Virus record (IMG/VR): IMGVR_UViG_3300032294_002706
Coordinates: 1 to 64,000 of that record
DNA: 64,000 bases
Strand: one strand, 5' to 3'
Origin: a virus
The position numbers and the translations under genes were made by a program. Below the pieces are notes generated by a model, which worked only from the letters and a program-made list of their open reading frames with translations, was not told where the DNA came from and made no database searches. The number at the start of each line of letters is the position of its first letter. Within the stretch, counting starts at the first letter, position 1. Of this stretch, positions 41,658-64,000 are shown piece by piece.

Positions 41658-42212
41658 ATGGAAATACTATCATTTGACAAATTTAAGTTATTATTGGAGG
41701 CTGACGAGGCAGCTCCACCAGCTCCGGAGCCGGCAGCTGAACCTACTCCACCTGCTGATCCATCCGCATCAGCTCCACCGCCACCTATGCCGGACCTAGG
41801 AGGATCTCCAATGCCCGACCCTTTAGCTGGTGCAACATTACCTCCTGATCCAAATGCTCCAGCTCCAACCGCTGGAACCTCAGTATTTAAAGTCGTATTT
41901 TTAGACTCTGAAAAACCATGGCACTCTAAGTATGCTGACGGCGGCGGAGTTAAGAGGTATAAAGAATACGAAATCACTCAAGGCGATCTAGATAAATGGA
42001 TTACCGACTCTAAGTTAGAAGCAAATAAAGACGCTCTTTCTCAAGCTGTGAGCGGTAAAAAACCTATCGAGAAAACTCTATTTGATAAATTAAAAGCAGC
42101 AGCAACTTCAAATAAACTTGGTAAGGACCGTGGCGACGTTGATGTAGATTATGATACTAAGCAAATCCCATCAACCTCTAAACTTGACCTAATTTTCATA
42201 ACAACCAAATGA
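41658..42212 (+). CDS. Probable capsid-internal protein with prohead-targeting-like N-terminus
   Basis: 184 residues from ATG 41658 (MEILSFDKFKLLLEADE). The in-frame upstream extension to 41613 crosses the terminator and promoter, so it is rejected. The N-terminal SFDKFKLLLE fits the motif shared by several proteins here (xFxxFxxxE) and resembles the T4 internal-protein targeting peptide removed by the prohead protease. Residues ~18-75 are a Pro/Ala/Asp-rich linker; residues ~76-184 form a Lys-rich alpha/beta domain (FKVVFLDSEKPWHS, DLDKWITDSKLE). The late promoter supports a virion or prohead role. The next gene overlaps its stop (ATGA). The function of the folded domain is not recognised. 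Confidence 0.6.
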   Translation: MEILSFDKFKLLLEADEAAPPAPEPAAEPTPPADPSASAPPPPMPDLGGSPMPDPLAGATLPPDPNAPAPTAGTSVFKVVFLDSEKPWHSKYADGGGVKRYKEYEITQGDLDKWITDSKLEANKDALSQAVSGKKPIEKTLFDKLKAAATSNKLGKDRGDVDVDYDTKQIPSTSKLDLIFITTK

Positions 42213-42934
42213 TAAAGCGTTTTAAAAACTTCATATATGAATCAAAGTTTGATTCTCTTTCACTTACTATTGCTCATGATCTATTTGCAATCGTGAAAAA
42301 TACTGCAGGTACCAAACCTGGTAAAGCAGTTCATCGGGAACTAACTTATTCGGAGCCTCTAGAGTTTAGTCTAAATTTTATTGTTAAAAGAGTCGTTCAA
42401 TTTAATCCAAGGAAATCTACTCATTTTAAAACTCTACCTTGGGAAGTTTTGAATTTTGAAGATAATGGCTTTGCGCTAGATGCAAATGCATACATTCCAA
42501 AAGTGTCAGATTACGAGGATCCTGAACTCGAATTAGTTCTCTACATTAGCCCAGATGCTGAACCTGTAAGTTATGAGACACTTAGCCATAAACTAGTTGA
42601 ATACGTTAGGCACGAAATCGAACATCTACTTCAAACTGGACTCAACCGTCGAGTTGGCCACATAATTAAAACTCCAAATAAGGTTAGATCAAAGGCGGAA
42701 ACTTCGTATAAGTACTTTTTATTAGCTGACGAAATTCCAGCAATGGTTGCTGGAATGCATGCAGCGGCAGTCAGAAAGAGAATTCCACTAGATCAAGAAT
42801 TCGAAATTTATTTAAAGCCTTTTCTTAAGTCAGGTTTAATAAATGACGAAGAATTCAATAAGGTCATTAAAACCTGGATAAAATTTGCAAATCAGGTTTA
42901 CCCAGATGCTAAATTTTCTAACAAAGTTTATTAA
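42209..42934 (+). CDS. HExxH metallopeptidase-like protein with capsid-targeting-like N-terminus
   Basis: 241 residues; the ATG overlaps the previous stop (ATGA). It starts MIKRFKNFIYESK, the same F-x-x-F-I-x-E motif as other candidate prohead cargo here. The zinc-site motif HEIEH is at 135-139. A downstream acidic residue, E175 in LLADEIPAMVAG, fits the third ligand of gluzincin-type metallopeptidases. The C-terminal 60 residues are helical. It has no signal peptide. The late promoter at 41642 and the coupled upstream gene suggest it is made with virion proteins. Proteolysis of a host or virion target is the likely activity; the substrate is unknown. The motif is clear, the family is tentative. 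Confidence 0.6.
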   Translation: MIKRFKNFIYESKFDSLSLTIAHDLFAIVKNTAGTKPGKAVHRELTYSEPLEFSLNFIVKRVVQFNPRKSTHFKTLPWEVLNFEDNGFALDANAYIPKVSDYEDPELELVLYISPDAEPVSYETLSHKLVEYVRHEIEHLLQTGLNRRVGHIIKTPNKVRSKAETSYKYFLLADEIPAMVAGMHAAAVRKRIPLDQEFEIYLKPFLKSGLINDEEFNKVIKTWIKFANQVYPDAKFSNKVY

Positions 42935-42939
42935 TATTT

Positions 42940-42967
42940 AAAACCTGGTGAAATTTTACTATATAAG
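42940..42967 (+). promoter_or_regulatory. Candidate promoter: AAAACCTG-N14-TATAAG
   Basis: AAAACCTG 42940-42947 and TATAAG 42962-42967, the same elements and spacing as at 36746-36773, 21 bases before the Hc1-like ATG. Confidence 0.45.
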
Positions 42968-42988
42968 ATACAAAAAATCTTTGAAATT

Positions 42989-43180
42989 ATGACACCACAA
43001 TGGTTAACTGAATTAAAAGAAGCAGTTTCTCAACTTGAAAATGAAACTGTGAAGTTCTACGAAAAGGGTAATAAATCTGCTGGAACTAGAACTCGTAAAC
43101 TTTTGCAAGATATTAAAGCAGTTTGTCAAGCCGGCAGAACTCACGTTCAAGAAGCAAAGACTAACGAGCCAAACGCTTAA
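42989..43180 (+). CDS. Histone H1-like (Hc1-type) DNA-binding protein
   Basis: 63 residues, helical. It shows the hallmark of the Bacteroidota/Chlamydia Hc1-like family: an acidic N-terminal helix (LTELKEAVSQLENETVKF), then KGNKSAGTRTRK at 26-37 and a second helix (LLQDIKAVCQAGRTHVQEAK). Bacterial members condense DNA and modulate transcription. It lacks the long Lys/Ala-rich tail of chlamydial Hc1. It has its own candidate promoter and a strong terminator, so it is a single-gene unit that could be highly expressed. A role in phage or host nucleoid remodelling is inference; acquisition from a host gene is plausible. Confidence 0.75.
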   Translation: MTPQWLTELKEAVSQLENETVKFYEKGNKSAGTRTRKLLQDIKAVCQAGRTHVQEAKTNEPNA

Positions 43181-43204
43181 TCTCTTAATAAAAAGTTCAC
43201 ATTA

Positions 43205-43238
43205 AAGGGCGAGTCTAAAAAACTCGCCCTTATTTTTT
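43205..43238 (+). terminator. Strong rho-independent terminator
   Basis: AAGGGCGAGT (43205-43214), loop CTAAAAA, ACTCGCCCTT (43222-43231), then ATTTTTT. A perfect 10-bp stem after the Hc1-like gene. Confidence 0.9.
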
Positions 43239-43292
43239 GAAACTACTTACGGTTTTTTAGTACAATTTTATAAATTAAAATCATTTTTGAAC

Positions 43293-44345
43293 ATGGAAGA
43301 TCTATTCAATCTCAATCTCGATGATTTCTCAGGAAAATCATCATCCGCTGCTCGTAAAGTCGACGAGAACATGTACAATCCCGGTCCAGACCAAGGTCAG
43401 AACGGTATTTACAAATCGGTAATTCGTTTTATCCCATGGGTAACGGATCCGTCTAAAAGCCGCTATAAGAAGTACGCTGCTAAACTTACCAACCCTCTAA
43501 CCAATGAGAAATTGTATGTGGACTGCCCTTCAACTACGGGAGCTTCATCAATTCTTTGGACTTTAGATCTAGAGTTGAAACGTTTGAAAACTGAGGAACC
43601 TCAAATCGTTGAGGAAATCCAAAAATACTTCAATCGTTATTACAACTACTACTCTTGCGTTTACATCAAGAAAGATCCTCAGTTCCCTAACTTAGAAGGT
43701 CAAATCAAAGTGTACTCATACGGTTACACAATTGATAACTTGATTCAACAAGAAATCAATCCAGAATCTGAATTAGTAACGACTCAAAAAATCAATCCAT
43801 TCTCACTTACTCAAGGTAAGGATTTTGTATTGGTTATTAAGCGCAAAACTAAAGCATGGAGAGATTTCAGCTCAAGTAAATTCATGAACGAAGTTAGCCC
43901 ATTGATCATTACTCATGGAGGAAAAGAAATTCCAGTTTCTACCGATCCTAAAGTAATGCAATTCACTAGCGAATACTTTAAAAAGAATTCGCCAGACATG
44001 AGCCAATACTTCTTAAAAGAATGGACTGACTCTGAGTATGAAAAGGTTGCAGACTACATTAAAGCAATCGTTCCTTACAAGCAAATCATTGATAACTTGG
44101 TTTCAAATACAAAGGACGAGAGAATGAAGAAGCACTTCACCAACTCAAAACCAGTAAATCGTTCTCAAGCTCCAATGGGAGAAGATATTGAATTTTCTCC
44201 AGCACCTGCTTCAAAATCAAGTGCAATGTCAATTGATCTTGATGACGATTTCACAAGTGAACCTGCTCCAGCTGCAAAAGCTTCGCCGGCTAAATCAGCT
44301 CCAGCTAAATCTGATGATCTAGACGATTTATTCGCAGACCTATAA
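43293..44345 (+). CDS. 32: gp32-like single-stranded DNA-binding protein
   Basis: 350 residues from ATG 43293 (MEDLFNLNLDDFSGK); an in-frame TTG two codons earlier is less likely. It coats ssDNA in replication and recombination. It has the gp32 layout: a short N-terminal self-association region, an OB-fold core with aromatic-rich strands (YKSVIRFIPWV, NRYYNYYSCVYIKK, FVLVIKRKTKAWRDF) and a flexible Ala/Pro/Ser stretch leading to an acidic tail (DLDDDF, DDLDDLFADL) that in T4 recruits partners. The zinc-site cysteines of T4 gp32 are not evident. It is the first gene of a gp32-orf-rnh-groES-HAD operon. Confidence 0.85.
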   Translation: MEDLFNLNLDDFSGKSSSAARKVDENMYNPGPDQGQNGIYKSVIRFIPWVTDPSKSRYKKYAAKLTNPLTNEKLYVDCPSTTGASSILWTLDLELKRLKTEEPQIVEEIQKYFNRYYNYYSCVYIKKDPQFPNLEGQIKVYSYGYTIDNLIQQEINPESELVTTQKINPFSLTQGKDFVLVIKRKTKAWRDFSSSKFMNEVSPLIITHGGKEIPVSTDPKVMQFTSEYFKKNSPDMSQYFLKEWTDSEYEKVADYIKAIVPYKQIIDNLVSNTKDERMKKHFTNSKPVNRSQAPMGEDIEFSPAPASKSSAMSIDLDDDFTSEPAPAAKASPAKSAPAKSDDLDDLFADL

Positions 44346-44360
44346 AAATATCCAAATAAC

Positions 44361-44651
44361 ATGGAAAATAATAAAAACGATAATTCAGAAATCGCTAACC
44401 CAGTTGAAACTCCTCAAGCTGAGGCTCAGCAACCAATTGCAACTCTGCTATCTTCAATAAGTTACACTGACCAAGCAGATTACGAAAAATTCTTGGCAAA
44501 TTTAACTCCTGAACATGCAGTATTGGTGTTAGTTTCATCAGCTAATCACTGTCAAGCAAAAGGTGTATTTAACTTGGATGAAGCCGAGTTAATCGCAAAG
44601 GCTATTAAAACGTTGAGCAAACCTCAACCTAATGTAGAACAATCTAAATAA
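44361..44651 (+). CDS. Small protein of unknown function between gp32 and RNase H
   Basis: 96 residues. The N-terminal 30 are polar and probably disordered (MENNKNDNSEIANP). Then come two or three helices (ADYEKFLANLTPEHAVLVLVSSANHC and LDEAELIAKAIKTLS). In T4 the neighbours of genes 32 and rnh include 33 and 59, but the sequence does not clearly match either. Spacing is 15 bases to gp32 and 7 to the RNase H gene, so it is cotranscribed with replication genes. Function not recognised. Confidence 0.65.
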   Translation: MENNKNDNSEIANPVETPQAEAQQPIATLLSSISYTDQADYEKFLANLTPEHAVLVLVSSANHCQAKGVFNLDEAELIAKAIKTLSKPQPNVEQSK

Positions 44652-44658
44652 AACTAAC

Positions 44659-45768
44659 ATGAATTTAATCATTGATGGAAATGCCTTTCTTAACGTAGCA
44701 GTTAGCATAGCCAAGAATATCTTAGCTAATGACAAACGAGTGGGCGAAAAGTATTACGTCTCTGATCTGTTGAATGACGATAAATTCATGCTTAAACAGG
44801 CAAGTAAGGATACTTTCAGGGCTTTTTCAGTAAACTACCTTGGAAGTATTCTTGCTCCGTTTAAGGAAAATATCAGTTCTGTATTTTTTGTATTCGACTC
44901 TAAAAGTTGGAGAAAGAAATACATCAAGGAACACTTTGAGGCTCACGGCGACGGAGATTTCTCTTACAAAGGACAACGTAAGTATGACGATAAAATTTAT
45001 CTCTTTTTTGAATACTTCCAAACAGAAATCTTAAACACAATTTCTGAAGAATACGGAATTGTTGTTAACCGGGTTCCTGGAGCGGAAGGTGATGATTTAA
45101 TTGCATACATTTGCGAAAATCTAAGAGAAGATATTTGTATTTGGTCAGTCGACAAGGATTTAACACAGTTGCTTGAAAGCAACAAGCGTAAAGTAATCCT
45201 AATAATGCCAAAGCAGATGACTAAGTACAAAAAGATCTACACTACTGAAGATTTTGGTCAGGTCCAAGAGGCTGAGATTGATCTATTCAATTTTAACATT
45301 GAATCAATCGATAATTCAGCAATAGTTAACATAATTAACGATTTGACCCAAAAAGATTATAAACATCTAACGGTTGATCCAACACTAGACATTCTAACTA
45401 AATGTTTAGGTGGAGATTCCTCAGATAATATTCCAAGAGTTCATCCAAAAATGACTCCAGCTAAGGTAACTAAGATCATTGATTACTTACGTGAATCGTA
45501 TAACTGGAAAGAGATCACTCCTCTAATTGATTCAGGTGATCAAGGTTTCATTGATATTTTACGTGAAGTTACATGTGAAGTTCTAAAGATAAAGGAACCT
45601 GGTGAATGGCAGACGATCGAGAATAACCTTAATCGTAATAAGACACTAATTCGTTTAAGCACTGCAGTTTTTCCAACTGACGTATTAGAATCGATCAAGC
45701 AAAGCGTTGACTTAACAGTAAGACGTAAGTTTAATTATTACAAATTTAAAAAAAATTATAAGAACTAA
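44659..45768 (+). CDS. rnh: RNase H / 5'-3' exonuclease (FEN1-like), T4 Rnh type
   Basis: 369 residues. It removes RNA primers and 5' flaps during lagging-strand synthesis. Acidic metal-site motifs in order: NLIIDGNAF at the N-terminus, FVFDSKSWRKKY, GAEGDDLIAYI, WSVDKDLTQL, and the H3TH region LGGDSSDNIPRVHPKMTPAKVTK. Length is slightly above T4 RNase H (305). Its last base is the first base of the GroES start, and it sits beside gp32, its functional partner in T4. Confidence 0.85.
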   Translation: MNLIIDGNAFLNVAVSIAKNILANDKRVGEKYYVSDLLNDDKFMLKQASKDTFRAFSVNYLGSILAPFKENISSVFFVFDSKSWRKKYIKEHFEAHGDGDFSYKGQRKYDDKIYLFFEYFQTEILNTISEEYGIVVNRVPGAEGDDLIAYICENLREDICIWSVDKDLTQLLESNKRKVILIMPKQMTKYKKIYTTEDFGQVQEAEIDLFNFNIESIDNSAIVNIINDLTQKDYKHLTVDPTLDILTKCLGGDSSDNIPRVHPKMTPAKVTKIIDYLRESYNWKEITPLIDSGDQGFIDILREVTCEVLKIKEPGEWQTIENNLNRNKTLIRLSTAVFPTDVLESIKQSVDLTVRRKFNYYKFKKNYKN

Positions 45769-46100
45769 TGAGCATAGACGTTCAACAAGGATTTATTCCA
45801 CTATTCGAAAGACTCTTAATTCTACCGGATAGCGTAGAAGTAAAAACTGAGACCGGCATTCTACTTTCAGTAGATGCACGCAAACGTCCCAATACTGGCA
45901 AAGTCGTTGGCCTAGGTCACCTAGTCGCAGACAACTCAAAATGTCCAGTTAAAGTTGGTGATAGAGTTCTTTACCAAAGATACTCAGGACTTGACGTAAA
46001 ATGGGATAGTCAAAACTATCATCTAGTAATGGCAAACGATCTCTTAGCCATAATCAATAAGGATCAAGAAACACAATTTGAATTAAATGAGCAATCTTAA
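45768..46100 (+). CDS. groES: GroES-like co-chaperonin
   Basis: 110 residues. It follows the GroES 10-kDa pattern: an N-terminal strand FIPLFERLLILPDSVEVKT, a mobile-loop region ETGILLSVDA, then NTGKVVGLGHL, KVGDRVLYQRYSG and a C-terminal ANDLLAIIN. The mobile loop has the Gly-Ile-Leu-type hydrophobic contact used to bind GroEL. It is a standard GroES more than a T4 gp31. Together with the GroEL at 30705-32288 the phage has a complete chaperonin system. The start overlaps the RNase H stop (ATGAG-type overlap), and the next gene overlaps its 3' end by 14 bases, so translation is coupled. Confidence 0.85.
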   Translation: MSIDVQQGFIPLFERLLILPDSVEVKTETGILLSVDARKRPNTGKVVGLGHLVADNSKCPVKVGDRVLYQRYSGLDVKWDSQNYHLVMANDLLAIINKDQETQFELNEQS

Positions 46101-46686
46101 AAGTTTCACGCAATTCGTGAACGAAGAAAAATCAAACGACTTTAGGATCTTTTGTGATCTTGACGGAGTCCTAGTTGATTTTAATAGAGGATTCATTGAG
46201 CTTGCCAGTAATACTGAAAAACTTTCGCCAAAAGCCTATGAAAAGGCTCACGGTAAAGATTCGCTATGGCCGCTAATCGATGAATTGGGAGAATCCTTCT
46301 GGGAAAATCTACAATGGATGAAGGACGGTAGAGAACTATGGGATTATCTTAAGAGATATGATCCAATAATTCTGTCTTCTCCAAGTAAACACCCAGGCTG
46401 TTTTACCGGAAAGGCTAAATGGGTAAAGCTTCATTTAGGAATTGACCAAGATCCAGTAACAGACCCTCAAAATTTTACAAAGGACACCCGATTTATCTTA
46501 GCTAATCGCAAGCACGATTACGTTGAGCCTGCAAAAACTCTATTTAAAAAGAAACCTCTGTTAATCGATGATTTCAATAAAAAACTAGAAAAATGGACTA
46601 ATGCTGGAGGAATTGGAGTTTTACATAACGATTCGACTGATACAATTCGAGTGGTTGAGGAAATTCTAGGCCCAGCTGAAGACTAA
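46087..46686 (+). CDS. HAD-superfamily 5'-nucleotidase-like phosphatase with capsid-targeting-like N-terminus
   Basis: 199 residues. The HAD motif I CDLDGVLVDF places the nucleophile and acid/base at D24 and D26. SSPSK near 100 fits motif II, and PLLIDDFNKK fits the motif IV acidic pair, as in the 5'(3')-deoxyribonucleotidase (NT5C-like) group. Residues 1-14, MSNLKSFTQFVNEE, precede the enzyme domain and match the F-x-x-F-V-x-E motif seen on other candidate head-packaged proteins here. It would release phosphate from nucleotides, either in the cytosol or, if packaged, early in infection. Downstream is a 54-base spacer with two small hairpins, then a strong terminator. Confidence 0.7.
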   Translation: MSNLKSFTQFVNEEKSNDFRIFCDLDGVLVDFNRGFIELASNTEKLSPKAYEKAHGKDSLWPLIDELGESFWENLQWMKDGRELWDYLKRYDPIILSSPSKHPGCFTGKAKWVKLHLGIDQDPVTDPQNFTKDTRFILANRKHDYVEPAKTLFKKKPLLIDDFNKKLEKWTNAGGIGVLHNDSTDTIRVVEEILGPAED

Positions 46687-46740
46687 AGTTCTCGGACTTA
46701 AACCGAGTGGTGGAACGCTGACCAACCGGTCGGCCTAAAT

Positions 46741-46768
46741 AAAAAAGGACTCGAATGAGTCCTTTTTT
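46741..46768. terminator. Bidirectional rho-independent terminator
   Basis: AAAAAAGGACTC - GAAT - GAGTCCTTTTTT, a perfect 12-bp palindromic stem with a T-tract on both strands. It sits between the convergent HAD-phosphatase and tail-sheath genes. The bases just before it (46687-46740) contain CTCGG-N7-CCGAG and GACC-N4-GGTC mini-hairpins of no known role. Confidence 0.9.
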
Positions 46769-46788
46769 TATTAAGTAGTGTGTGTCTT

Positions 46789-49700
46789 TTAGAATGATGG
46801 AGTAAATCCAGTAGAGTTTGAAGCAAGTTGACCTCCAGCTCTTGTGATTGTGATACGGTTGATGAACTTGTGAATACCTCTTGGGAAATCAACGATAATA
46901 TCAATGATACCAGCGTTATTTTCAAGAACTTCAGTTCCATTGTTTGAATCATCAAATACTACATCGAATGTTGAGATACCTCTAGCGTCTTGAACTGCAG
47001 TTAAGTAGTTCTTAACAAGAGTTTTAACTCTTAATCTAGTAGTAGTATCGTTGAAGTCGAATAGGAAGTTCAATAAGATTCTTTCAATATCTCTTTCAAT
47101 CGTTACTAGAGCTTCTCTTACGTGAACGTTATTTAAAGCTGATTTAACTTTTTGGTATCCAGTGTTGTTTGAGAAAATCATAACACCGAAACCTCTACGT
47201 CTAACGATCAAGTTGAAACCTACTGGCTCCAAGAAGTCTCTATCGTCATTCGTTAAGTCATACTCAACTCCTGTAATTTCTGGTTCAGAGATAATACCTC
47301 TTTTTCCTGCTACGATTGAGAAAGTGTTTCCACTAGAATACTTCTTCATGTAAGTATTCGCAACGTAAGCAGCTGGCGGAATTGATTTATTTCTACCACC
47401 TTCAAAGATTACTAAGTTAGGCATGAAATACGCAGCATAAGATGCGATTGAAATACCATTTTTCTCTCCAGTTGCAAAATTGAACGTGTAAGATGGATTA
47501 GACGATAAGTTACCACCAGTCGAAATGTATTCAGCTGATACTAAATTGGTGTTAACATCAATGAAGCTTGGATCAATTGATTTCTCGTATTGTGCAAAAG
47601 ATGGAGCATTTAGGATAGCTAGAGCTTTTCCGTGATTTGCTGCAAGTTGAGCAAGTTGTTGCTTAGAAGCGCTCCAAATTTGACCTTCATACGAATCAAT
47701 AATGTAACGGTAATCTAGAGTTTCGTTATCGGCTAATGTAGAAGCAATGTTAGTATCATTGAACATATAGTCCAAGATAGTGTTTTGACGATCCGCTGTT
47801 CCGTTAGGATACAATCCGCTTTCATCAACTTGCATTGCTGGAACATAGAATCCTCTAAGATCAGTTACGTAGTTTTTAATTCCTTTGTAAACTGTAAGAC
47901 CTGCGGTTCCGCCTAAAACAGCTGGAGTAATATCGATACCTGTGATATTTGAATCAGCTGCAGTATCAACAGTAACCGTGTATTTTAAAGTTTTAACCGG
48001 TAAGCTAGAAGGACCGTAGTTTACAGTAACTAGTTGACTGTAAACTGATTTAATTCTTAATGCACGATTACGAATTACTTGATCTCCGTTTGTGTCTTTA
48101 ACGATTCCGGCTTTAACCCATTGTCCAACTTTAAAGAATGAATCCACTAGAGTTCTCTTTGTTGAATCGTAAGTATATCCAGTATTTGCAACTTCTTTCT
48201 TAGCAGTATTTCCATAAAGTGAAGGATTCAAAGTAAATACCACTTGATTAGGAGAAAAGAATCTGTAATTGTTAGCTCCGGTAGTGATGAAGTAGCTAGA
48301 ATCAGTCAAATCGAAATCCGCTTTAAATTGAGTAACTGTAGTTGATTTGATATGTAGATAAGCTGGTGCTGGACTAGCGATACCGTCAGTTATGTACTTA
48401 ACGTCAACTTGATTTTGGAATGCTGCATCTTGATAAGCGTAAAACTCGATGTACTTGATTTGACCTGTGCTTTGAGTTTTAACCAAACCGTCAGTCGATA
48501 AGTAAAGAGTAGTAGGCGTGCTAGATGGAGCAGCTAAGTAGTGTAGAGTGTCTCCGGTTTTAATAAATCCATTTGCCCATGCAGTATACAATTTACTTCC
48601 GATTGTTGCAACGATGTACTTATCGCCAGTCGGTAAATTAGATGGACCTGAAAGCTTTTGAATTGTGTAAGTTTCACCAGCCGCATAAGTTGAATTATAA
48701 TCAACGCTGTCTAATGCGAAGTAGTACTCGTATCCAGCTGATTTTCTGTAGCTCAATACATCGATTAGAGCAACTGGATCAACTGTGCTGATTCCGTTAT
48801 CTACTGTGTAAAGTTGCTTAGTGTTATCAGTTGTGTTAAGTTCATCAAACCCGTATCCAACTAGATCAATTCTTTGCTCTGCGATTGGCTCAGTTGAACT
48901 ACCGCTATCGAATGTAGCATTAGTTAAGTCAATCATGTCAACTTTCTTGTAGTCAATTGCGCAAAATACTCCAGATTGACTAAACTTTCTATTAAATAAT
49001 GCGTCGATTGAAGCAACTGCTCCAGTTAAATCTCTAAAATCAGGAATCATTGCTCCGATCGTACGATTTACTACTGAAACTTCTCTCAATGAAAGGAAAT
49101 CATTCATCTTTGCAAGTTCAATACCTGATGGATTAAAGAACTGTGCGTAAATTGGATCTTTTGAAAGTCTGGCGTAATCAGTCCAATCTCCTTCAACTAC
49201 TGCGATTTCAACGAAGTAATCTGCTACGTAATCGTCTGGGTGTAAGAATTCTGGAATTTCTACTTTATCTCCTAGCAGTTTGTAGTATTCCTTAACTTTA
49301 ATGTCGTATCCAGTAGTATCAGCTACTCTAACCCATGCAGTAACAGCTTTCTTAGAAAGGTTAACTAAACTTAAAAGTTTATTAGCGTCTCTGTCCGCTG
49401 TTCCAGTTGCTGGGAATGAGTCACCTAACTGAATGTTTTTGTACTTGTTAACTGCATCAACATCAGCAAACCATAGTTTCTGAGTATTGTAGAAGTGTGA
49501 AAGGCTATCTTGATAAAGATTAGCCGCCCAAGTTGAATTATTTGATGCTGATTCAGTATTGAATGTTGTAAAGTATGCAACGTCCGTGTCTGCAACAGGT
49601 AAAAGATTCAAAGCGTAAACTGGGCCTTGTCTCAAAGCTACTTCTATAGTTCTGTGAAAGAAGCTTCCGTTCTTTTCTAGTTTAGAATCATTTTCTCCGT

Positions 49701-50544: not shown

Positions 50545-51918
50545 ATGATTGTAAGTACTGAATTTCACACGGAAGACTCAACGCTAGTCATTTCGTATTA
50601 TAAGCCAGATGGAACAATTGGATTTATGAAAAAACCAATTCTACCTCATGACCTTTATAACTGGAACCTAACTCCAACTCCGACCGAGCACCGTAACTGG
50701 GATGGAAAATTTCTAAAAAAGGTTCAAGGTAAATGGTTGAGTCGTTTTAGACTTGAAGAATTGACCCAAATTCGATTAGATCAAACTGAGTTAGATTCAA
50801 TTTATTCAGATGATAGTCCAAAAAAATACTATCTGGATATTGAGATTCAGTTATTATCAACCGACTTTCCGGATCCAAACAAAGCAGCAATGCCAGTTAA
50901 TTTAATAACGTTTGTGAATGAGGATAATATTTGTTTTGTAATGTCAACCATGAAGAACTTAGAGAATCCAGTAATTTCTCAAATGCAAGATGAGGTTAAC
51001 GATTACTTTAAGGCACACGGCCAAGACTTTACTCTTAAGTATCTGTTTTTTGAGACAGAGGAAGAGATGATGACAACCTTTTTCCACAAAGTGCTTCCTA
51101 AAATTCCATTCTTAACCGGTTGGAATGTAATTGGATTTGACTGGTTATACTTAATCAATCGTTGTAAGAATTTAGGAATTGAGCCAATGGCAAAAATGCC
51201 ATCTAAAACATTGATCGGTAAGGCTAAAATGCCAGTTCACATGGGACTTCTGGATTACATGGAAGTTTTCATGAACACAAAGCCGTATAAGGTCGTTGAG
51301 AATTATAAGTTAGACTACATCGCTAATCTTGTGCTTGGAACCACTAAATTACATAGTGAGTATGCGACCATGCTAGAAGCTCAGCAGGACGTTGAGAACT
51401 TCATCAAGTATAACATCATCGATACGATTCTTATCAAGCTAATAGAGGACAAGCTTGGTCTACTTGATGTAGCCTTTGCCATCTCTAAATTTGCGAGAGT
51501 CGATGTTTCTAAAGTATTTTCAGCAGTATTCATTACTGAAACCTTAATGTGTAGAGAATTCTTAGAACGCGGTTTATACATGGCAAACGATCGAAGAGAT
51601 CTTGAAGAGGACGCAACTTACGATGGTGCATACGTTGCAAAACCTGAACCTGGATACTATAAGTACGTATCATGTTTTGACTTTGCCTCAATGTATCCAA
51701 ACATTCAAATTCAGTTTAATATCTCGCCAGACGCGTACTTAGGCAAAAACAAACCTGATCAAGAACCTACTGAAGGCCAGATCCTAACTAAAAACAATAC
51801 TCTATTTACTAAAAAGTTTGATTCAGCAGCTCGCACAATCTTAACTCGTTTGTATAACGGTCGTGTGGACACGAAGAATGAAATGAAAAAATTAGAAGAG
51901 CAACTAAATGCTAAATAA
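50545..51918 (+). CDS. 43: Family B DNA polymerase, N-terminal part (exonuclease + palm motif A); split gene
   Basis: 457 residues. It has the proofreading exonuclease motifs: exo I D98-I-E100 (YYLDIEIQ), exo II GWNVIGFDW (D199), exo III YNIID (D293). Polymerase motif A is at D379 (CFDFASMYPN). It stops after a helical LYNGRVDTKNEMKKLEEQ, just before where the fingers and motif B (KxxxNSxYG) should begin. Motifs B and C (YGDTDS) are absent from it and from the rest of the window. The end is a clean TAA, with no intein motif and no frame that continues the homology. This looks like a split gp43 whose C-terminal subunit is encoded elsewhere. The next gene overlaps by 11 bases. Confidence 0.85.
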   Translation: MIVSTEFHTEDSTLVISYYKPDGTIGFMKKPILPHDLYNWNLTPTPTEHRNWDGKFLKKVQGKWLSRFRLEELTQIRLDQTELDSIYSDDSPKKYYLDIEIQLLSTDFPDPNKAAMPVNLITFVNEDNICFVMSTMKNLENPVISQMQDEVNDYFKAHGQDFTLKYLFFETEEEMMTTFFHKVLPKIPFLTGWNVIGFDWLYLINRCKNLGIEPMAKMPSKTLIGKAKMPVHMGLLDYMEVFMNTKPYKVVENYKLDYIANLVLGTTKLHSEYATMLEAQQDVENFIKYNIIDTILIKLIEDKLGLLDVAFAISKFARVDVSKVFSAVFITETLMCREFLERGLYMANDRRDLEEDATYDGAYVAKPEPGYYKYVSCFDFASMYPNIQIQFNISPDAYLGKNKPDQEPTEGQILTKNNTLFTKKFDSAARTILTRLYNGRVDTKNEMKKLEEQLNAK

Positions 51919-58549: not shown

Positions 58550-58551
58550 TC

Positions 58552-60213
58552 ATGAAGATACACGAATTTTCTTTTAGAAACATCTGCTCATACGGCAATA
58601 AATTACAAACATTCAAGTTCACAGATGAACCTCGACTGATCCTAGTTCAGGGTAAAAACGGTAGTGGCAAATCTTCAATCTCGGATGCTTTAACCGTGTC
58701 AATATACGGTAAATCTGCAATTCGCAAGACAAAGGAAATCCCTAATCGAATCAATAAGAACGCCTATACTCAGATTAAATTCGTTACCGGAAACGGCCAA
58801 CTTATTGATATTGAAAGAGGAATCGAACCTAACTTTTCAAAGCTTTCAATTGATGGAGTTGAATATAATTTGCCAGATAAACGAAGAGTCGATGAATTCA
58901 TTGAAGACGAATTGACCAAGATACCCTTTAACGTTTTCTCAAATACCATTAGCTTGTCAGTTAATGATTTTAAGAGCTTCGTTAAACTTAGCCCAGCCGA
59001 TAAACGTCAAATCATCGATAAGATATTTGGTCTAGACATAGTTAACGATATGGCTAAGGTTGCAAAGGAAGAATCCAAAAAGATTAAGGGTGATATTCTA
59101 CCTCTTGAATCAGCAATTTCGAGCAATCAAAGATTATTAGAATCTTCAATCTCTCAACTTGAAGCCTTACAGTCTGAAATAAAAACGAGTAATGATGCAA
59201 AAATTGCAGAATTAAACGCGGCGCTTGAACAGTTAGCGACTGATAAAAAAGCAGCTCACACAGAAGCTAGTAGTTTTTCAGGTAAAATTTCTGAAATTAG
59301 ACAAAGTATTAGAGCTGAACAGGAGAAACTAAGCACAGTTAGAGTTAACATTTCTGAAATTCAAAAGAAACTGGACATTTACAATAAGAATAAGTGTCCG
59401 CATTGTCTTTCTGATTTAACTGATGAGGTTCATTCTCAAATCAAAGATAAGCTTGTTGCAAAAAAGACTGAACAAGAATCAGCGTTTCCTGCAATTTCAG
59501 AAAGAATTAAAGTTCATGAGAAAGACTTATCTGCTGTAGAAACAGAATCTAGTGAAGCAAAGGGCAAGTACTATCAAATTGAGGCTCAAATAACTGCAGT
59601 TAAGCGTGAAATATCTGATCTAAGCCGACAGGGTAACCAGGCATCAGATAAACATTTAACTGAGGTCATTAACAATATCAAGTCAGAGATCCAGACCTCT
59701 AGCTCTAGTCTATCTGAAAGACAGGAAAAGTTAAAAGTTTCCCAAGAGATGGAAATGATCTTATCTGATAACGGCATGAAGAAGATGCTAATGAGCCAAA
59801 TCATTCCATTATTGAATAAAAAGATACTAAAGACTGCTAAAGTCTTAGAGTTTAAATTCGCATTCGAGTTTGATCTAGAGTTCAATCCAATAATAACTCA
59901 TTTGGGCATGCAAGTTTCGCCAGATTCATTATCGGCTGGTGAGCAAAAGAAAATGAATCTAATCGTTTTACTGTGCATACTAGAATTAATTAAATTAAAG
60001 CACAATAAGGTGAATCTTCTCTTCTTGGACGAGGTGTTCTCTTCACTAGACGTTGATTCAATCTTTAGAGTAGTTGACCTTTTGAAAACTTTTGCCAAAA
60101 AGTACAACATGACAGTTTTCGTGATCTCCCATGATCCTTTACCTGAAGAGTATTTTGATACCAAGATCCAGGTTGAAAATACTGATCATTTTTCTGACCT
60201 AAAAATCGTTTAG
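58552..60213 (+). CDS. 46: gp46-like recombination ATPase (SbcC/Rad50 family)
   Basis: 553 residues. Walker A is GKNGSGKSS (34-42). A central coiled coil (about 170-420) carries the zinc hook C282-P-H-C285. The ABC signature SLSAGEQKKMN and Walker B LLFLDEVFSSLD follow in the C-terminal lobe, then VFVISHD. It partners gp47 and powers end resection. Length equals T4 gp46 (560). It is the last gene of the uvsX-gp46 run; a short AT-rich spacer with a promoter precedes the next. Confidence 0.9.
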   Translation: MKIHEFSFRNICSYGNKLQTFKFTDEPRLILVQGKNGSGKSSISDALTVSIYGKSAIRKTKEIPNRINKNAYTQIKFVTGNGQLIDIERGIEPNFSKLSIDGVEYNLPDKRRVDEFIEDELTKIPFNVFSNTISLSVNDFKSFVKLSPADKRQIIDKIFGLDIVNDMAKVAKEESKKIKGDILPLESAISSNQRLLESSISQLEALQSEIKTSNDAKIAELNAALEQLATDKKAAHTEASSFSGKISEIRQSIRAEQEKLSTVRVNISEIQKKLDIYNKNKCPHCLSDLTDEVHSQIKDKLVAKKTEQESAFPAISERIKVHEKDLSAVETESSEAKGKYYQIEAQITAVKREISDLSRQGNQASDKHLTEVINNIKSEIQTSSSSLSERQEKLKVSQEMEMILSDNGMKKMLMSQIIPLLNKKILKTAKVLEFKFAFEFDLEFNPIITHLGMQVSPDSLSAGEQKKMNLIVLLCILELIKLKHNKVNLLFLDEVFSSLDVDSIFRVVDLLKTFAKKYNMTVFVISHDPLPEEYFDTKIQVENTDHFSDLKIV

Positions 60214-60240
60214 GCTAACCTTTTTTCATTTTCTTAGTAT

Positions 60241-60248
60241 TATATTTG
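60241..60248 (+). promoter_or_regulatory. Bacteroidota-type -7 element TATATTTG
   Basis: TATATTTG is an exact TAnnTTTG, 20 bases before the ATG at 60269, with a T-rich stretch (60221-60233) about 20 bases upstream in the -33 region. It is the best host-like promoter in the window. Confidence 0.5.
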
Positions 60249-60268
60249 AATAGTATTATTTCCGAATT

Positions 60269-61162
60269 ATGATTACATTTACAGGGCTCACTTTTGCACA
60301 AGCATATAAGCATTCAATAGAGTATCTATTGGCTAATGGCATGGTTAACAATGCTAGGGGCACAACAAGTAAAGAATTGCTTGATGTTGCAATAGTGGTT
60401 GAGGATCCGACTCAGTGTCTATATGATAATGAAGTTAGAGGTTCTCAGCAAAAATATATTGCTGCCGAATTTTTATGGTACTATGCTGGTCGAAATGATG
60501 TTGCTTTCATTTCAAAATGGGCAAAGTTCTGGGAAACCATTCAAAACCCAGACGGCACTGCGAATTCAGCATACGGAAACCTGATCTTTAATGAGAAGAA
60601 CCAATACGGCCTTACTCAATATCAATGGGCAATTCAAAGTTTAATGAATGATTCTAGCACAAGACAAGCAATTCTTCATTTTAATAAACCTTCTCATCAA
60701 TATTTGACCAATAAGGATTTCGTATGTACAATGTACGCAAATCTACATATTCGCCAAAATAAGTTATACATGAGCGTCTACATGAGAAGTAATGATGCAA
60801 TTTGGGGTACTTCGACCGATGTTGCCTTCTTTTGTTCGTTACAAATGCAGATTCATGCTCATCTAAAGGAAATTTATCCAGATCTTGAACTTGGGACCTA
60901 CACTCATGTTGCAAATTCATATCACGTTTACGATAGGCATTACGATCTAGCGCAAAGAATGATTAATTCAGACTTTATCCCGGTCAAATTACCTTCAATT
61001 ACGACTGATTTGATAGACATAGACGGTTCGTCAAGTCAAGATTTTAATATTGTATTTGCAGCATCTACTGGCCAGACTGATGAACTTGTGTTATTTCAAC
61101 AAGATAACGATCTTTTGAAATGGATTTTTGAAAAATTAAAAGAGGATAAGAATGTCATTTAA
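60269..61162 (+). CDS. 42: dCMP hydroxymethylase-like enzyme (thymidylate synthase family)
   Basis: 297 residues. The catalytic cysteine is C153 in DFVCTMYANLHIR (T4 gp42: DFMCTNTVQYLIR; thymidylate synthases have PCH). The phosphate/base block MRSNDAIWG is near-identical in pattern to T4 gp42 (MRSNDVVFG). D184 falls where thymidylate synthase has the dUMP-selecting Asn and T4 dCMP hydroxymethylase has Asp. HVYDRH (219-224) is the other substrate loop. The prediction is dCMP to 5-hydroxymethyl-dCMP with methylene-tetrahydrofolate, giving hmC-DNA. A thymidylate synthase with altered pocket is the alternative. It is longer than T4 gp42 (246). The dCMP deaminase gene overlaps it by 11 bases. Confidence 0.75.
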   Translation: MITFTGLTFAQAYKHSIEYLLANGMVNNARGTTSKELLDVAIVVEDPTQCLYDNEVRGSQQKYIAAEFLWYYAGRNDVAFISKWAKFWETIQNPDGTANSAYGNLIFNEKNQYGLTQYQWAIQSLMNDSSTRQAILHFNKPSHQYLTNKDFVCTMYANLHIRQNKLYMSVYMRSNDAIWGTSTDVAFFCSLQMQIHAHLKEIYPDLELGTYTHVANSYHVYDRHYDLAQRMINSDFIPVKLPSITTDLIDIDGSSSQDFNIVFAASTGQTDELVLFQQDNDLLKWIFEKLKEDKNVI

Positions 61163-61625
61163 TTCAGTTAGCACACAGCGTCAACACCTAATAGATGTTA
61201 CCTACATCAAGATGGCCCAAACTTGGTCAGGTCTTTCTCATGCGATCCGTAAAAAAGTTGGAGCCCTAATCGTAAAGAACAATACAATCATTGCTGATGG
61301 GTATAATGGCACTCCTTCCGGTTTTGAAAATGAATGTGAGATTGCAATAAGCCATGAGGATGGTTCATTCAAGGAATATCAAACTAAATGGTACGTTTTA
61401 CATGCAGAATCTAATGCACTTGCAAAGGTTGCCAAATCAACACAAAGTAGCGACGGGGCTACTCTTTATATTACCTACTCTCCATGCACAGATTGCAGCA
61501 AATTAATTTTACAGGCAGGAATCAAGCGAGTTGTGTATTTAGAAGAATACCGAGATATCGCCGGCCTTGACTTCTTAAGAAGAGCTGGCGTTGAAGTTAA
61601 AAAAATCGACCCAGAAACACTATGA
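61152..61625 (+). CDS. cd: dCMP deaminase
   Basis: 157 residues. The zinc-binding and catalytic motifs HAE (84-86) and PCTDC (C112, C115) belong to the deoxycytidylate deaminase family. It converts dCMP to dUMP for thymidylate synthesis. It overlaps the gp42-like gene, so both enzymes compete for the dCMP pool released by the gp56-like enzyme. The GYNGTPSG segment is the usual substrate loop. Length is near normal (T4 Cd 193). Confidence 0.9.
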   Translation: MSFNSVSTQRQHLIDVTYIKMAQTWSGLSHAIRKKVGALIVKNNTIIADGYNGTPSGFENECEIAISHEDGSFKEYQTKWYVLHAESNALAKVAKSTQSSDGATLYITYSPCTDCSKLILQAGIKRVVYLEEYRDIAGLDFLRRAGVEVKKIDPETL

Positions 61626-62023
61626 TCGATTCATTAGAAAGAAAGCTTGAAATCGTTTTCGTAAGAGATCAAAAACAATTCATTCAAGCTTTTAATAAAA
61701 AGCAGAAGTGCGATTATTTACTAAATGTGAATAAAATAATAAAGGAAAAGTTCGATCACGAAATTCTTGTGCCGAACAAAATCCAAGCGTTCCTAATAAA
61801 TTATGAAATTAAGAAATTAATTGACAAAGCGATTAATGTTAGGAATCGTAAATACAATCGAATAATCTACGTTAATGCTGGTCTCAGCGTTAGTAACATC
61901 AATAATACTGTCAAGTTTCTGAATACTGCATACGGAACAATTGAATTCGTTCCTAGCTTAATAGACGGAGATTTTGAAATTGGCGAACTTACTGGAGTAG
62001 AGACAATAAAAAAGGGGCATTAA
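61622..62023 (+). CDS. Protein of unknown function after dCMP deaminase
   Basis: 133 residues; the start overlaps the previous stop (ATGA), implying coupling. It is Lys/Asn/Ile-rich and alpha/beta (LEIVFVRDQKQFIQAF, FLINYEIKKLIDKAI, YNRIIYVNAGLSVSNI). No motif recognised. The stop codon lies in the loop of the following terminator. Confidence 0.6.
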   Translation: MIDSLERKLEIVFVRDQKQFIQAFNKKQKCDYLLNVNKIIKEKFDHEILVPNKIQAFLINYEIKKLIDKAINVRNRKYNRIIYVNAGLSVSNINNTVKFLNTAYGTIEFVPSLIDGDFEIGELTGVETIKKGH

Positions 62024-62040
62024 GCCCCTTTTAAGTTTTA
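62010..62040 (+). terminator. Rho-independent terminator
   Basis: AAAAGGGGC (62010-62018), loop ATTAA, GCCCCTTTT (62024-62032), then AAGTTTTA. It ends the 60269-62023 operon and, being nearly symmetrical, probably also the convergent minus-strand unit. Confidence 0.85.
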
Positions 62041-62160
62041 TTAGATAAAGTTTTCGAAGTTCTTTTCGCTTTCATTATAAAATCCGTAAAATCGATACTC
62101 GGTTCCGTCAAATATACAGATGCCTGGACTATTAATGGAAAAATCTATTCCTATATTCAT
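62041..62160 (-). pseudogene. 39-residue RuvC-like N-terminal fragment
   Basis: The minus strand encodes MNIGIDFSINSPGIC and continues to a TAA at 62041, 39 codons. The opening IGIDFSI..P..CI matches the first strand (with catalytic Asp) of the RuvC-like protein at 29031-29705 (VIGIDFSIQFPAVCI). The rest of the RNase H fold is missing. It may be the remnant of a second RuvC-like gene cut off by recombination at the terminator, or a very short gene. Confidence 0.55.
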
Positions 62161-62214
62161 TTATTTCTGGTTAAGAAGTCCTATTTAAAATTTCAAATAC
62201 TTTGCGTTGTTCAT

Positions 62215-62955
62215 CTAGATATACATAGTTGCCTCGTTTAAGGCTGACTCATTAGTTTGTAATATTGATTTCAGAATTGATATAAATTCATTTTTTCCGA
62301 AAGTTTTGTATCGTAATGGTTTAAATATCTCATCTGAATCATATCCCAATACAAAATAAGTTGGACCATCTCCTTCATCTGTAATTGCGTCAAACGATAA
62401 ATTAACCTTTCTGTCCTTTAAATCTATCTGAGACTTGTAACCTATGGTCCACTTTCTGCCATTTCTTTGCATTGCATGTTTTCCATCCATAGTTAATGCA
62501 TTACCATTATGTGGTAAGTAAGTTATGTCATTTCCAGAATCTAAGATTGCTTTAGAAATACTTCCAACAAATCGGTTATTAAGTTTTTTACCACCTAGTC
62601 TTGTCATTTTTTCAATAAAAGAAAGGGGGGCCTCTGTAGTATTATATAATTCTTCAATCTCTTCAGGAGTTGCTCCTAATTCAATCGCTTTGTTTCCAAG
62701 ATCTGAGAATTGGGACTGTCTGTAAGGCGATGTTCTGCTAGAACTATCGTATTTGAGAGGTGCTCCTGCGAGTTTTAGACCAGCAATAAATCTAGATATA
62801 GCTTTTTCCTTATCTTTAATAAGCTTAGCCGCTTTTTCTCCTTCATCGTTTTTCATAACAAGATCTAACATACGATCCCAGTCCTTTGTCTCTACTCGAG
62901 CAGCTTCGTTTACCGAGTTTATAAATTCTTCAAATAGTTTAAGTTTAAATTTCAT
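62215..62955 (-). CDS. Candidate capsid-internal protein with targeting-like N-terminus
   Basis: 246 residues. It starts MKFKLKLFEEFINSVNEAAR, a basic F-x-x-F-I then V-N-E, similar to the prohead-targeting motif of neighbouring genes. The rest is Lys/Asp/Ser-rich and mostly helical up to residue ~140. A beta-rich part follows (GRKWTIGYKSQIDL, RKVNLSFDAITDEGDGP, TYFVLGYDSDEIF). No catalytic motif recognised. It overlaps the small upstream gene by an ATGA, and lies downstream of two more motif-bearing genes, so it belongs to a coupled minus-strand cassette. Function unknown; head packaging is inferred. Confidence 0.55.
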   Translation of the reverse strand: MKFKLKLFEEFINSVNEAARVETKDWDRMLDLVMKNDEGEKAAKLIKDKEKAISRFIAGLKLAGAPLKYDSSSRTSPYRQSQFSDLGNKAIELGATPEEIEELYNTTEAPLSFIEKMTRLGGKKLNNRFVGSISKAILDSGNDITYLPHNGNALTMDGKHAMQRNGRKWTIGYKSQIDLKDRKVNLSFDAITDEGDGPTYFVLGYDSDEIFKPLRYKTFGKNEFISILKSILQTNESALNEATMYI

Positions 62956-63113
62956 AATTTTAAATTTTTTTCAGGAGTAAGTTCTTCTACTGAATAAATA
63001 TCTCCTCCTGAACTAAGTTTCATCTTATTCCAGATATCGGTTTCAATTTTCATCAAACGGTTTAAAGTTACTTTACCCGAGGCTTCATTTACAAATTGAG
63101 TAAACTTCTTTAT
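62952..63113 (-). CDS. 53-residue gene with capsid-targeting-like start and no ATG/GTG/TTG
   Basis: The open frame lies between a stop at 63117-63119 and a TGA at 62952-62954 that overlaps the next gene's ATG (ATGA). It reads ATA-KKFTQFVNEASGK and ends ELTPEKNLKL. No standard start precedes KKFTQFVNEA, the same motif as in 46087-46686 (KSFTQFVNEE). The ATA (63113) overlaps the TAA stop of the upstream gene; an ATC just before it is the other choice. Initiation at AUA or AUC by translational coupling is the simplest reading; a sequencing error or an inner ATG at 63053 would be alternatives. Confidence 0.5.
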   Translation of the reverse strand: MKKFTQFVNEASGKVTLNRLMKIETDIWNKMKLSSGGDIYSVEELTPEKNLKL

Positions 63114-63457
63114 GATTTAGATTTCTCAACCTTTCCTGAATAGATCAATGCATCTTCTGGTTTGTTTTGGTCATTAACCGCGACAATATCAAAATCTCCA
63201 TCCTTATCCGCTTTTGGTGAAATTGCAATGATTGCACCAGCTTTAATGCTAGGATTAGTTGATTTACTCACATTGAACGAAATCATTTCCTTGGTCGTGA
63301 ATTCGCTATCGCTAGTTCCTTCAACTCCAAAAGATTTTCCGTCCGCTGTGATGTTGAGAGTATACGAACCGGGTTTCGCAGCAGTAGTCGGCTCCTCCTG
63401 CTTTGGAGCAGTTGCCAGGTCTTCCTCAGCTAACCATTGTTCAAATAACTTGATCAT
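63110..63457 (-). CDS. Small acidic protein with capsid-targeting-like N-terminus
   Basis: 115 residues, MIKLFEQWLAEEDLATAP: the F-x-x-W-L-A-E form of the shared N-terminal motif, followed by an Ala/Pro/Glu/Thr linker (residues ~14-30). A small beta-rich domain follows (SYTLNITADGKSFGVEGT, AGAIIAISPKADKDGDFDIV). No enzyme motif. The downstream small gene starts at its stop codon; the gap to the acidic gene upstream is 7 bases. Likely virion-internal or prohead component by motif and neighbours; function unknown. Confidence 0.5.
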   Translation of the reverse strand: MIKLFEQWLAEEDLATAPKQEEPTTAAKPGSYTLNITADGKSFGVEGTSDSEFTTKEMISFNVSKSTNPSIKAGAIIAISPKADKDGDFDIVAVNDQNKPEDALIYSGKVEKSKS

Positions 63458-63464
63458 TCTCTAA

Positions 63465-64000
63465 TTATGCGTTTTCGTCTTGGTCTTCGTCGTCTCCGAT
63501 AGCGTTATCGTCGTCGTCTTGGTTTTCGTCTTCATCACTTTCTTCTGTGCAAAGTTTCTTAACTGCTGCACATACTAGATCGCAAATGTCTTCTTTTGTC
63601 ATTTCCATCTTTTCAGCGATATCTTCAATGATGTCTTTAAGATCATCTCCGAACTCTTCCATTAAAGTGGCTAATTGTTCTTCGTCGATTACTGGCTCGT
63701 CAGACGGCATATCGTCATCGTTTGCTGGCATATCGTCGTTTGCTGGCATTTCTTCTTCTGCCTCAGCGAACATGTTAAAATCTTCGTTAACGAATTGTTC
63801 AAAGCGAAGGATTTTTCCTTCTTCAACAGCGTCAACTGTTGCAATTGTTGGTTTTGCGTACATTGGGTTAAATGGTTTTTTCTTTGCCGTTCTTGAAATA
63901 AGGTCACGAGTTACCGCCTTCCATGTTGGGTCATAATTGTGGTTGAATTTTCCACCTTCAAAATCGGCATTTCTGTCAATCACTCGTTGATAGCCTTTCA
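63465..64000 (-). CDS. Acidic virion/prohead-type protein (N-terminus outside window)
   Basis: Open on the minus strand to the right window edge; a GTG at 63983 is in frame but the frame continues (KGYQRVIDRNADFEGGKF), so the true start is beyond. At least 178 residues are present. It contains an internal RFEQFVNEDFNMFAEAEEE, the same F-x-x-F-V-N-E element that is N-terminal in other proteins here. The C-terminal half is strongly acidic (MPANDDMPANDDDMPSDE, EDENQDDDDN) with a helical IIEDIAEKMEMTKEDICDLV. The internal site could be a protease cleavage or recognition site in a core or scaffold protein. Function not established. Confidence 0.55.
   Translation of the reverse strand, partial: KGYQRVIDRNADFEGGKFNHNYDPTWKAVTRDLISRTAKKKPFNPMYAKPTIATVDAVEEGKILRFEQFVNEDFNMFAEAEEEMPANDDMPANDDDMPSDEPVIDEEQLATLMEEFGDDLKDIIEDIAEKMEMTKEDICDLVCAAVKKLCTEESDEDENQDDDDNAIGDDEDQDENA

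What the first reader, a model, noticed from the sequence alone, without database searches (positions are those of the whole stretch)
41658..64000. Shared capsid-targeting-like peptide on at least six proteins
Proteins at 41658, 42209, 46087, 62215, 62952 and 63110 start with a short basic/hydrophobic peptide of pattern F-x-x-F/W-(V/I/L)-x-E (SFDKFKLLLE, RFKNFIYE, SFTQFVNE, LFEEFINSVNE, KFTQFVNE, LFEQWLAE). A copy is internal in the acidic protein at 63465-64000 (RFEQFVNE). T4 internal head proteins carry a similar N-terminal targeting peptide cut by the gp21 protease after (L/I)-x-E-like sites. The set includes two enzyme-like folds, so this phage may load a defined cargo of enzymes into its head and inject them with the DNA. 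To my knowledge such a cargo set has not been described for this phage type.
Basis: partly seen in the sequence, partly recalled or inferred. Interest (0 to 1): 0.85.

Follow-up and report, generated by a model that had tools for sequence, protein, structure and literature searches.

The report
Expanded T4-type capsid-targeting tag set
Many unrelated proteins of this uncultured large phage begin with the same kind of short peptide that phage T4 uses to put proteins inside its head, so the phage probably carries a cargo of enzymes in each particle and releases them into the cell it infects.

Summary
The peptide is real and far above chance. A tag matrix, trained without T4 and without the genome tested, scores 94 of 41,634 N-terminal windows at 10 bits or more in seven related records, against 24 of 342,494 elsewhere and about 0.8 in shuffles. 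The family matrix run on the T4 proteome ranks IPII and IPIII first and second of 49,554 windows. The spacing equals the residues assigned by mutagenesis to targeting (4, 7) and processing (8, 10) in T4 IPIII. The record encodes a gp21-like protease and gp23 outside the window. With tags removed, 130 tagged proteins of eight genomes form 84 families: the tag is modular. New here: the two largest relatives read (270 and 253 kb) carry 23 and 25 tags, and the protease is fused to a domain with about ten 14-residue repeats of a similar motif, perhaps the docking site. Virion content, cleavage and injection are untested.

The parts
41658..42212 (+). tagged protein with Pro/Ala-rich linker; odd tag SFDKFKLLLE at 41670-41699
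   Evidence: homologues in G004 and G008 carry canonical tags; beside the 42209 homologue in all seven records of the family
42209..42934 (+). tagged metallopeptidase-like protein (HExxH); tag RFKNFIYE at 42218-42241
   Evidence: relaxed tag pattern and HExxH in 48 of 48 distinct homologues; AlphaFold mean pLDDT 91.5, residues 1-7 under 50
46087..46686 (+). tagged 5'-3' deoxyribonucleotidase; tag SFTQFVNE at 46102-46125
   Evidence: phrog_2643 E 1.6e-23; homologues in Atu_ph07, Phosso and Cr30 begin at the catalytic domain without a tag
62215..62955 (-). weakly tagged orphan; LFEEFINSVNE at 62905-62937
   Evidence: 7.6 bits; no homologue in the relatives searched
62952..63116 (-). short frame with a very good tag, KFTQFVNE at 63084-63107, but no standard start codon
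   Evidence: 28.6 bits; stop-to-stop frame without ATG/GTG/TTG before the motif
63110..63457 (-). tagged small protein; tag LFEQWLAE at 63425-63448
   Evidence: 23.3 bits; tag kept in the 12 distinct homologues shown, down to 28% identity
63465..64000 (-). protein with acidic C-terminal half and an internal copy of the motif, RFEQFVNE at 63783-63806; the ORF runs on to 64124 of the record
   Evidence: rank 4 of 40,322 windows; same residue 108 in G001, G002 and G003

Best explanation
The peptide is a T4-type capsid-targeting sequence (CTS). During head assembly each tagged protein is drawn by its N-terminal peptide (two aromatic residues three apart, then Ile/Leu/Val-x-Glu) into the internal scaffold of the growing prohead. 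The gp21-like protease then cuts after the Glu and frees the protein inside the head, and the protein is ejected into the next host with the DNA. Shown by sequence: the shared N-terminal motif, its match to T4's functional residues, the modular use, and the protease and gp23 in the record. Inferred: incorporation, cleavage and ejection. More tentative: the tag docks on, or imitates, the 14-residue repeats (Y-x-x-Y-[LVI]-A-E) of the scaffold-like domain that is fused to the protease in this lineage.
For: Leave-one-out matrix: 94 of 41,634 N-terminal windows against 24 of 342,494 elsewhere at 10 bits or more; shuffles total about 0.8, reversed proteomes 5. The matrix, made without T4, puts T4 IPII and IPIII first and second of 49,554 windows, the gp23 stretch FGSFLTE|AE, which ends at residue 65, sixth, and ipI ninth; T4 gp23 loses 65 N-terminal residues (PMC9958956, passage). 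T4 IPIII: residues 4 and 7 target, 8 and 10 are processed. gp21-like PF03420, E 2.5e-12; gp23 PF07068, E 1.2e-41; phrog_207 head maturation protease, E 4e-37. 130 tagged proteins, 84 families after tag removal. 48 of 48 distinct homologues of 42209 keep a relaxed tag pattern, although the model leaves it outside the confident fold. Shared tag residues use the same codon in 0.44-0.52 of cases in four records, 0.43-0.44 expected, so selection acts mainly on the peptide. Own gp23 has AINE|S near residue 51; of 11 distinct gp23 N-termini that passed my filter (16 ORFs), 8 have [IL]NE[SA] there. Tag density at 12 bits: nine phages with the repeat array 3.6-9.1 per 100 kb, eight without it 0-1.8.
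Against: No virion data exist for this lineage in what I read. Cargo is not basic (median pI 5.5), whereas the T4 internal proteins are described as basic. Some relatives carry the tag on peptidoglycan-cleaving enzymes (Phage_lysozyme, VanY), odd for head cargo if they are the endolysins; in G002 and G003 the tagged lysozyme is the only Phage_lysozyme match. No enrichment of T4-like late promoters before tagged genes. The docking idea is weak in one direction: a matrix made of the scaffold repeats gives 2 N-terminal windows in the top 20 of this record (1.9 expected), 3 in G001 and G004, 5-9 in G002, G003, G005 and G008 (2.3-2.7 expected), but also 4 in S-PM2 and 4 in SPO1; it does rank T4 IPIII and IPII second and third. 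No detectable homology between the fused protein and gp22 (hhalign probability 0.8%). The nine array phages are related, and the matrix comes from them, so the density contrast is neither nine independent cases nor unbiased.
Confidence: 0.82

Rival explanations
1. The peptide targets proteins elsewhere, for example an amphipathic membrane anchor or a signal for another phage compartment, and resembles the T4 tag by convergence.
For: Short, N-terminal, partly hydrophobic and basic; some tagged proteins are cell-wall enzymes.
Against: An anchor would not need a Glu at a fixed place with Ile/Leu/Val two before it, nor would its matrix rank T4 IPII and IPIII first in T4. gp21-like protease and gp23 are present.
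Confidence: 0.08
2. The tag marks substrates of the prohead protease or proteins bound to the scaffold as assembly factors, which leave the head or are degraded and are never injected.
For: Carriers 65884 and 66208 lie beside gp23 and look like small core components; T4 core proteins gp22, gp67 and gp68 are cut to fragments by gp21 (PMC5694885, passage).
Against: In this record 7 of the 9 carriers at 12 bits or more lie over 10 kb from gp23, and several carriers in the family are enzymes (nucleotidase, NUDIX, AAA ATPase).
Confidence: 0.07
3. Chance and loose pattern choice: common amphipathic N-termini fit a degenerate motif.
For: A looser pattern raises the background (15 N-terminal hits, shuffle mean 5.3, maximum 14).
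Against: Leave-one-out and shuffle results; zero windows at 12 bits or more in S-PM2, HTVC008M and SPO1; conservation of the tag in 48 of 48 homologues.
Confidence: 0.02

Closest known systems
T4 capsid-targeting sequence of IPI, IPII and IPIII
   Same: Position at the N-terminus, spacing aromatic-x-x-aromatic-[IL]-x-Glu, presence of gp21-like protease and gp23, varied proteins behind one tag
   Different: T4 has three proteins annotated ipI-ipIII and three N-terminal windows at 12 bits; records here carry 5-23; cargo is near-neutral and in part enzymatic; the protease is fused to a repeat-bearing domain, whereas T4 has a free gp22
SPN3US/phiKZ ejection proteins with propeptides
   Same: Many proteins packaged and ejected; prohead protease removes N-terminal propeptides (PMC5694885, passages)
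   Different: Several of those propeptides exceed 100 residues; of the N-terminally processed SPN3US head proteins only gp45 has a CTS-sized one
P1 DarB capsid-targeting sequence
   Same: An N-terminal stretch sends DarB, and a reporter, into the head (PMC9024508, passages)
   Different: Longer than 9 and shorter than 30 residues, and no consensus among Dar proteins by the authors' BLAST
Protease-scaffold gene pairs of other tailed phages (recalled: lambda C/Nu3)
   Same: Protease and scaffold encoded in one reading frame
   Different: Here the scaffold-like part holds a repeat that resembles the cargo tag; I recall no such tag set in lambda and did not test it

Membership tests
T4-type capsid-targeting sequence | Short peptide at the extreme N-terminus | tested here: met
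   94 N-terminal against 24 other windows
T4-type capsid-targeting sequence | Aromatic residues at T4 positions 4 and 7, Ile/Leu at 8, Glu at 10 | tested here: met
   Family matrix compared with mutagenesis summarised in PMC9026906; the pattern was part of the selection, so the independent part is the T4 retrieval
T4-type capsid-targeting sequence | Portable between unrelated proteins | tested here: met
   84 families among 130 tagged proteins, chosen with the looser pattern and so including some false ones; nucleotidase homologues with and without tag
T4-type capsid-targeting sequence | gp21-like protease and gp23 in the same phage | tested here: met
T4-type capsid-targeting sequence | Directs proteins into the prohead and is cut after Glu | not testable with these tools
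   needs virion mass spectrometry or fusions
T4 internal proteins IPI-IPIII as protein families | Homology of the mature part | tested here: inconclusive
   PHROGs scan of the proteins of six of the seven window copies (not 62952) and four further ORFs gave two families, both for the nucleotidase; the IPs were not compared directly
T4 gp22 scaffold | Detectable profile homology of the fused domain | tested here: not met
   hhalign of the whole fused protein (33 sequences) with six gp22s: probability 0.8%, E 0.068
Peptidase S77 (gp21) | Profile match over curated cut-off | tested here: met
   42.8 bits, cut-off 27; H85 and S140 columns invariant in 33 sequences (the catalytic role of these residues is recalled)

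The most novel reading that the evidence does not exclude
The cargo tag is a single, detached copy of the scaffold's own repeat. In this lineage of huge-phage relatives the protease-scaffold carries about ten such repeats in 14-residue register, forming long helices that offer many docking sites; this multivalence let the phages expand from T4's few internal proteins to about twenty unrelated injected enzymes and effectors. It would explain how the T4 core recognises the CTS.
Probability: 0.38. Interest if true: 0.87.

Novelty: new variant of a known kind. Interest (0 to 1): 0.72.

Why it matters
A 2023 review says that the mechanisms that localise certain proteins in the T4 scaffolding core 'remain mysterious' (PMC9958956, passage). 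A lineage whose scaffold-like domain carries a repeated relative of the tag gives a concrete, testable docking site. The tag also acts as an annotation tool: it picks out, among the many unknown genes of uncultured large phages, proteins likely to enter the host first, where T4's examples (IPI, IPIII, Alt) counter defence or take over transcription. It may also provide new tags for loading proteins into phage heads.

Tried and rejected
T4-type late promoters (TATAAATR within 100 nt): 1 of 11 tagged and 4 of 119 untagged genes in this record; 1 of 15-26 or fewer in most relatives (2 of 15 in G001), so no clear enrichment; T4 itself, as control, gave 0 of 6 tagged and 23 of 255 untagged. Not used.

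gp22 homology of the fused domain: not found. An eye-level likeness of T4 gp22 'EWLAENKLAVDKGIK' to the repeats was not taken as evidence: T4 gp22 ranks 7th with the tag matrix, but gp22 of five other phages ranks 32nd to 101st.

Repeat matrix used to retrieve tags: absent in this record and weak or moderate elsewhere, told under evidence against.

Fold of 42209: no Foldseek match at E 0.001 or better; VIA-align best Z 4.8, with zinc peptidases and IrrE at Z 3-4.6 among unrelated rows; sequence search of the PDB empty. Function left as metallopeptidase-like from HExxH only. The scaffold model has low confidence (mean pLDDT 57.5), with the repeat region drawn as long helices.

The gp23-centred loci L008-L087 are a poor place to measure tags: 17 N-terminal hits in 418 non-redundant proteins, shuffle mean 2.7, 7 of the 17 from G000 itself.

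Pfam: 20 tagged or motif-bearing ORFs of this record gave no match over a curated cut-off; 6 of 30 representatives from relatives did.

The nearness of this record to the published bS21 phages (PMC9723584) or moraphages (PMC12619734) was not tested; only passages were read. No bS21 match in G000, which may be a fragment; 3 of 10 records have one.

Full report
WHAT WAS CHECKED. The window is the first 64,000 bases of a linear IMG/VR virus record of 129,692 bases. The rest was read in stretches and ORFs were called with a simple longest-ORF rule, so start codons are not verified. All seven peptides of the finding are present. The strict pattern F..[FWY][VILFMT].E occurs in the first 35 residues of 8 of 131 proteins; 500 shuffles average 0.47 with a maximum of 3; the rate inside proteins is about six times lower.

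RELATIVES. gp23 of this record found 128 related stretches in viral contigs, of which the tool kept 80 loci. Six related records were read whole or nearly so (G001-G005, G008), then seven named phages and the 462-kb record LR756500. With a slightly looser pattern the counts in the first 30 residues were: G000 12 of 130 (shuffle mean 1.3), G001 17 of 218 (2.8), G002 25 of 320 (3.9), G003 27 of 318 (3.4), G004 9 of 160 (1.6), G005 14 of 210 (2.7), G008 10 of 164 (1.7); LR756500 34 of 663 (11.3), T4 8 of 261 (3.4), KVP40 13 of 386 (4.0), Melnitz 10 of 208 (2.1), S-PM2 3 of 246 (3.6), HTVC008M 2 of 190 (2.3), Cr30 3 of 267 (4.5), SPO1 2 of 196 (1.8). By this looser pattern Melnitz and KVP40 exceed their largest shuffle (6 and 12) as well; by the matrix at 12 bits each has one N-terminal hit.

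THE MATRIX TESTS. A 12-column matrix trained on tags of the other genomes, G000 and G001 being left out together, gives at 10 bits or more 9, 14, 23, 25, 6, 11 and 6 N-terminal windows in G000, G001, G002, G003, G004, G005 and G008, and 4, 4, 3, 3, 3, 7 and 0 elsewhere. Orthologous cargo in the training set makes this not fully independent. The same kind of matrix from all seven records (90 distinct tags), applied to T4, which took no part, ranks IPII and IPIII first and second of 49,554 windows; third is a window inside a 587-residue ORF, fourth gp61.1, fifth an ORF that overlaps tRNA genes, sixth the gp23 stretch AQAFGSFLTEAE, ninth IPI (gene names). Known from a review: CTS residues 4 and 7 of IPIII target, 8 and 10 are processed, and gp21 cuts after L/I-x-E (PMC9026906, passages).

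MODULARITY AND CONSERVATION. Tags removed, 130 tagged proteins from eight genomes form 84 families (chosen with the looser pattern, so some are false). The nucleotidase 46087 has tagged forms in G000-G003, while homologues in Atu_ph07, Phosso and Cr30 start directly at the catalytic domain; those of HTVC008M, Melnitz and immuto have N-terminal extensions without a clear tag. Of 76 homologues of 42209 longer than 200 residues, 48 were distinct; all 48 keep a relaxed tag pattern and HExxH, down to 33% identity. AlphaFold models 42209 well (pLDDT 91.5) except residues 1-7. Thus a conserved peptide lies outside the confident fold, as expected of a handle. Homologues of 41658 and 42209 stand side by side in all seven records.

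CARGO. Tagged proteins with a domain match over cut-off, 6 of 30 representatives scanned from relatives: NUDIX, leucine-rich repeats (one scanned member of a family of seven in LR756500), Phage_lysozyme, VanY, AAA, DUF2201 metallopeptidase/VWA. In this record: deoxyribonucleotidase by PHROGs, while Pfam matches were under cut-off. A phosphoribosyltransferase-like loop in 121744 is an eye reading without a database match. Median pI after the tag is 5.5, against 5.7 for untagged proteins.

THE SCAFFOLD. The gp21-like domain lies in a 663-residue ORF at 68437-70428(-) of the record, just before gp23 in the direction of transcription. Residues about 290-440 are a tandem array of 14-residue units, consensus I-x-Y-[ST]-[EN]-Y-[LVI]-A-E-x-[LV]. 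An ORF with at least four units (5 to 10 found) is present in 67 of 80 loci, 66 of them in exact register of 14; in the other 13 loci gp23 begins within 900 bases of the locus start, so the gene before it is cut off. LR756504, LR756501 and LR745206 have the array as well, nearly perfect; Lak-A2 has the protease in a long ORF without the array. Before fetching I wrote the prediction that LR745206 would have many tags and Lak-A2 few; over the first 200 kb, 8 and 1 N-terminal windows reached 12 bits. Over all phages: 3.6-9.1 per 100 kb in nine with the array, 0-1.8 in eight without. The matrix comes from the array lineage, which biases this contrast, and the array phages are related. The tag matrix ranks the best array unit of each record 10th to 50th among 35,186-81,121 windows, but the reverse search fails in this record and is only moderate in others. 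The likeness is in pattern; preferred residues differ (Phe-Phe-Asn in tags, Tyr-Tyr-Ala in repeats). I therefore hold the docking idea at 0.38.

NOVELTY. In T4 a varied set of injected proteins behind a conserved CTS is established (PMC3012670, passages; PMC9391042, passages); P1 DarB has a CTS of its own (PMC9024508, passages). Nine searches of the paper library were answered (lists capped in 76 and 120); none of the titles or abstract starts listed describes a CTS set in huge phages or a scaffold repeat resembling the CTS. The huge-phage paper PMC7162821 has no 'targeting sequence', 'prohead' or 'internal protein' in its main text (term search). Most subscription papers are not covered.

Noticed in passing
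L242 967-1131 (T4 18966-19130, gene 61.1): T4 gp61.1, a hypothetical protein, begins MKTFKEFIKED and ranks 4th in the T4 proteome with the tag matrix: a candidate further internal head protein of T4.
   Followed up: no
L234:8015-8335 (Caulobacter phage Cr30 28015-28335, -): Tagged protein MKTFKQFFNES... with a weak PARP-like match (E 0.0018, under cut-off): possibly an ADP-ribosyltransferase cargo like T4 Alt.
   Followed up: partly
record 128725-129390 (-), L006:4725-5390: Protein with a tag-like stretch TIREYLNEQ followed by YHGST, which looks by eye like an ADP-ribosyltransferase start; no Pfam match.
   Followed up: partly
window 30705-32288 (+): Phage-encoded GroEL-type chaperonin (PF00118, E 8.1e-68); a DnaJ-like ORF lies at record 70493-71386 (-) by eye.
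   Followed up: partly
window 50545-51918 (+): ORF that looks by eye like the exonuclease half of a family B DNA polymerase, ending early; the gene may be split.
   Followed up: no
window 3-1439 (-) and 2496-4871 (-): Low-complexity proteins among the tail-region ORFs: GTSGSSG repeats and long Thr runs.
   Followed up: no
record 118866-119522 and 123124-123885 (-): Two ORFs that look by eye like GIY-YIG homing endonucleases, near a cluster of tagged genes.
   Followed up: no
record 108266-109003 (-), L005:4266-5003: Protein with two internal copies of the motif (residues 129 and 181); weak match to phrog_24078.
   Followed up: no
G002 220818-221663 and G003 171610-172434: Tagged proteins that join an annexin-like stretch (by eye) to a phage lysozyme domain: a cell-wall enzyme with a head tag.
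   Followed up: partly
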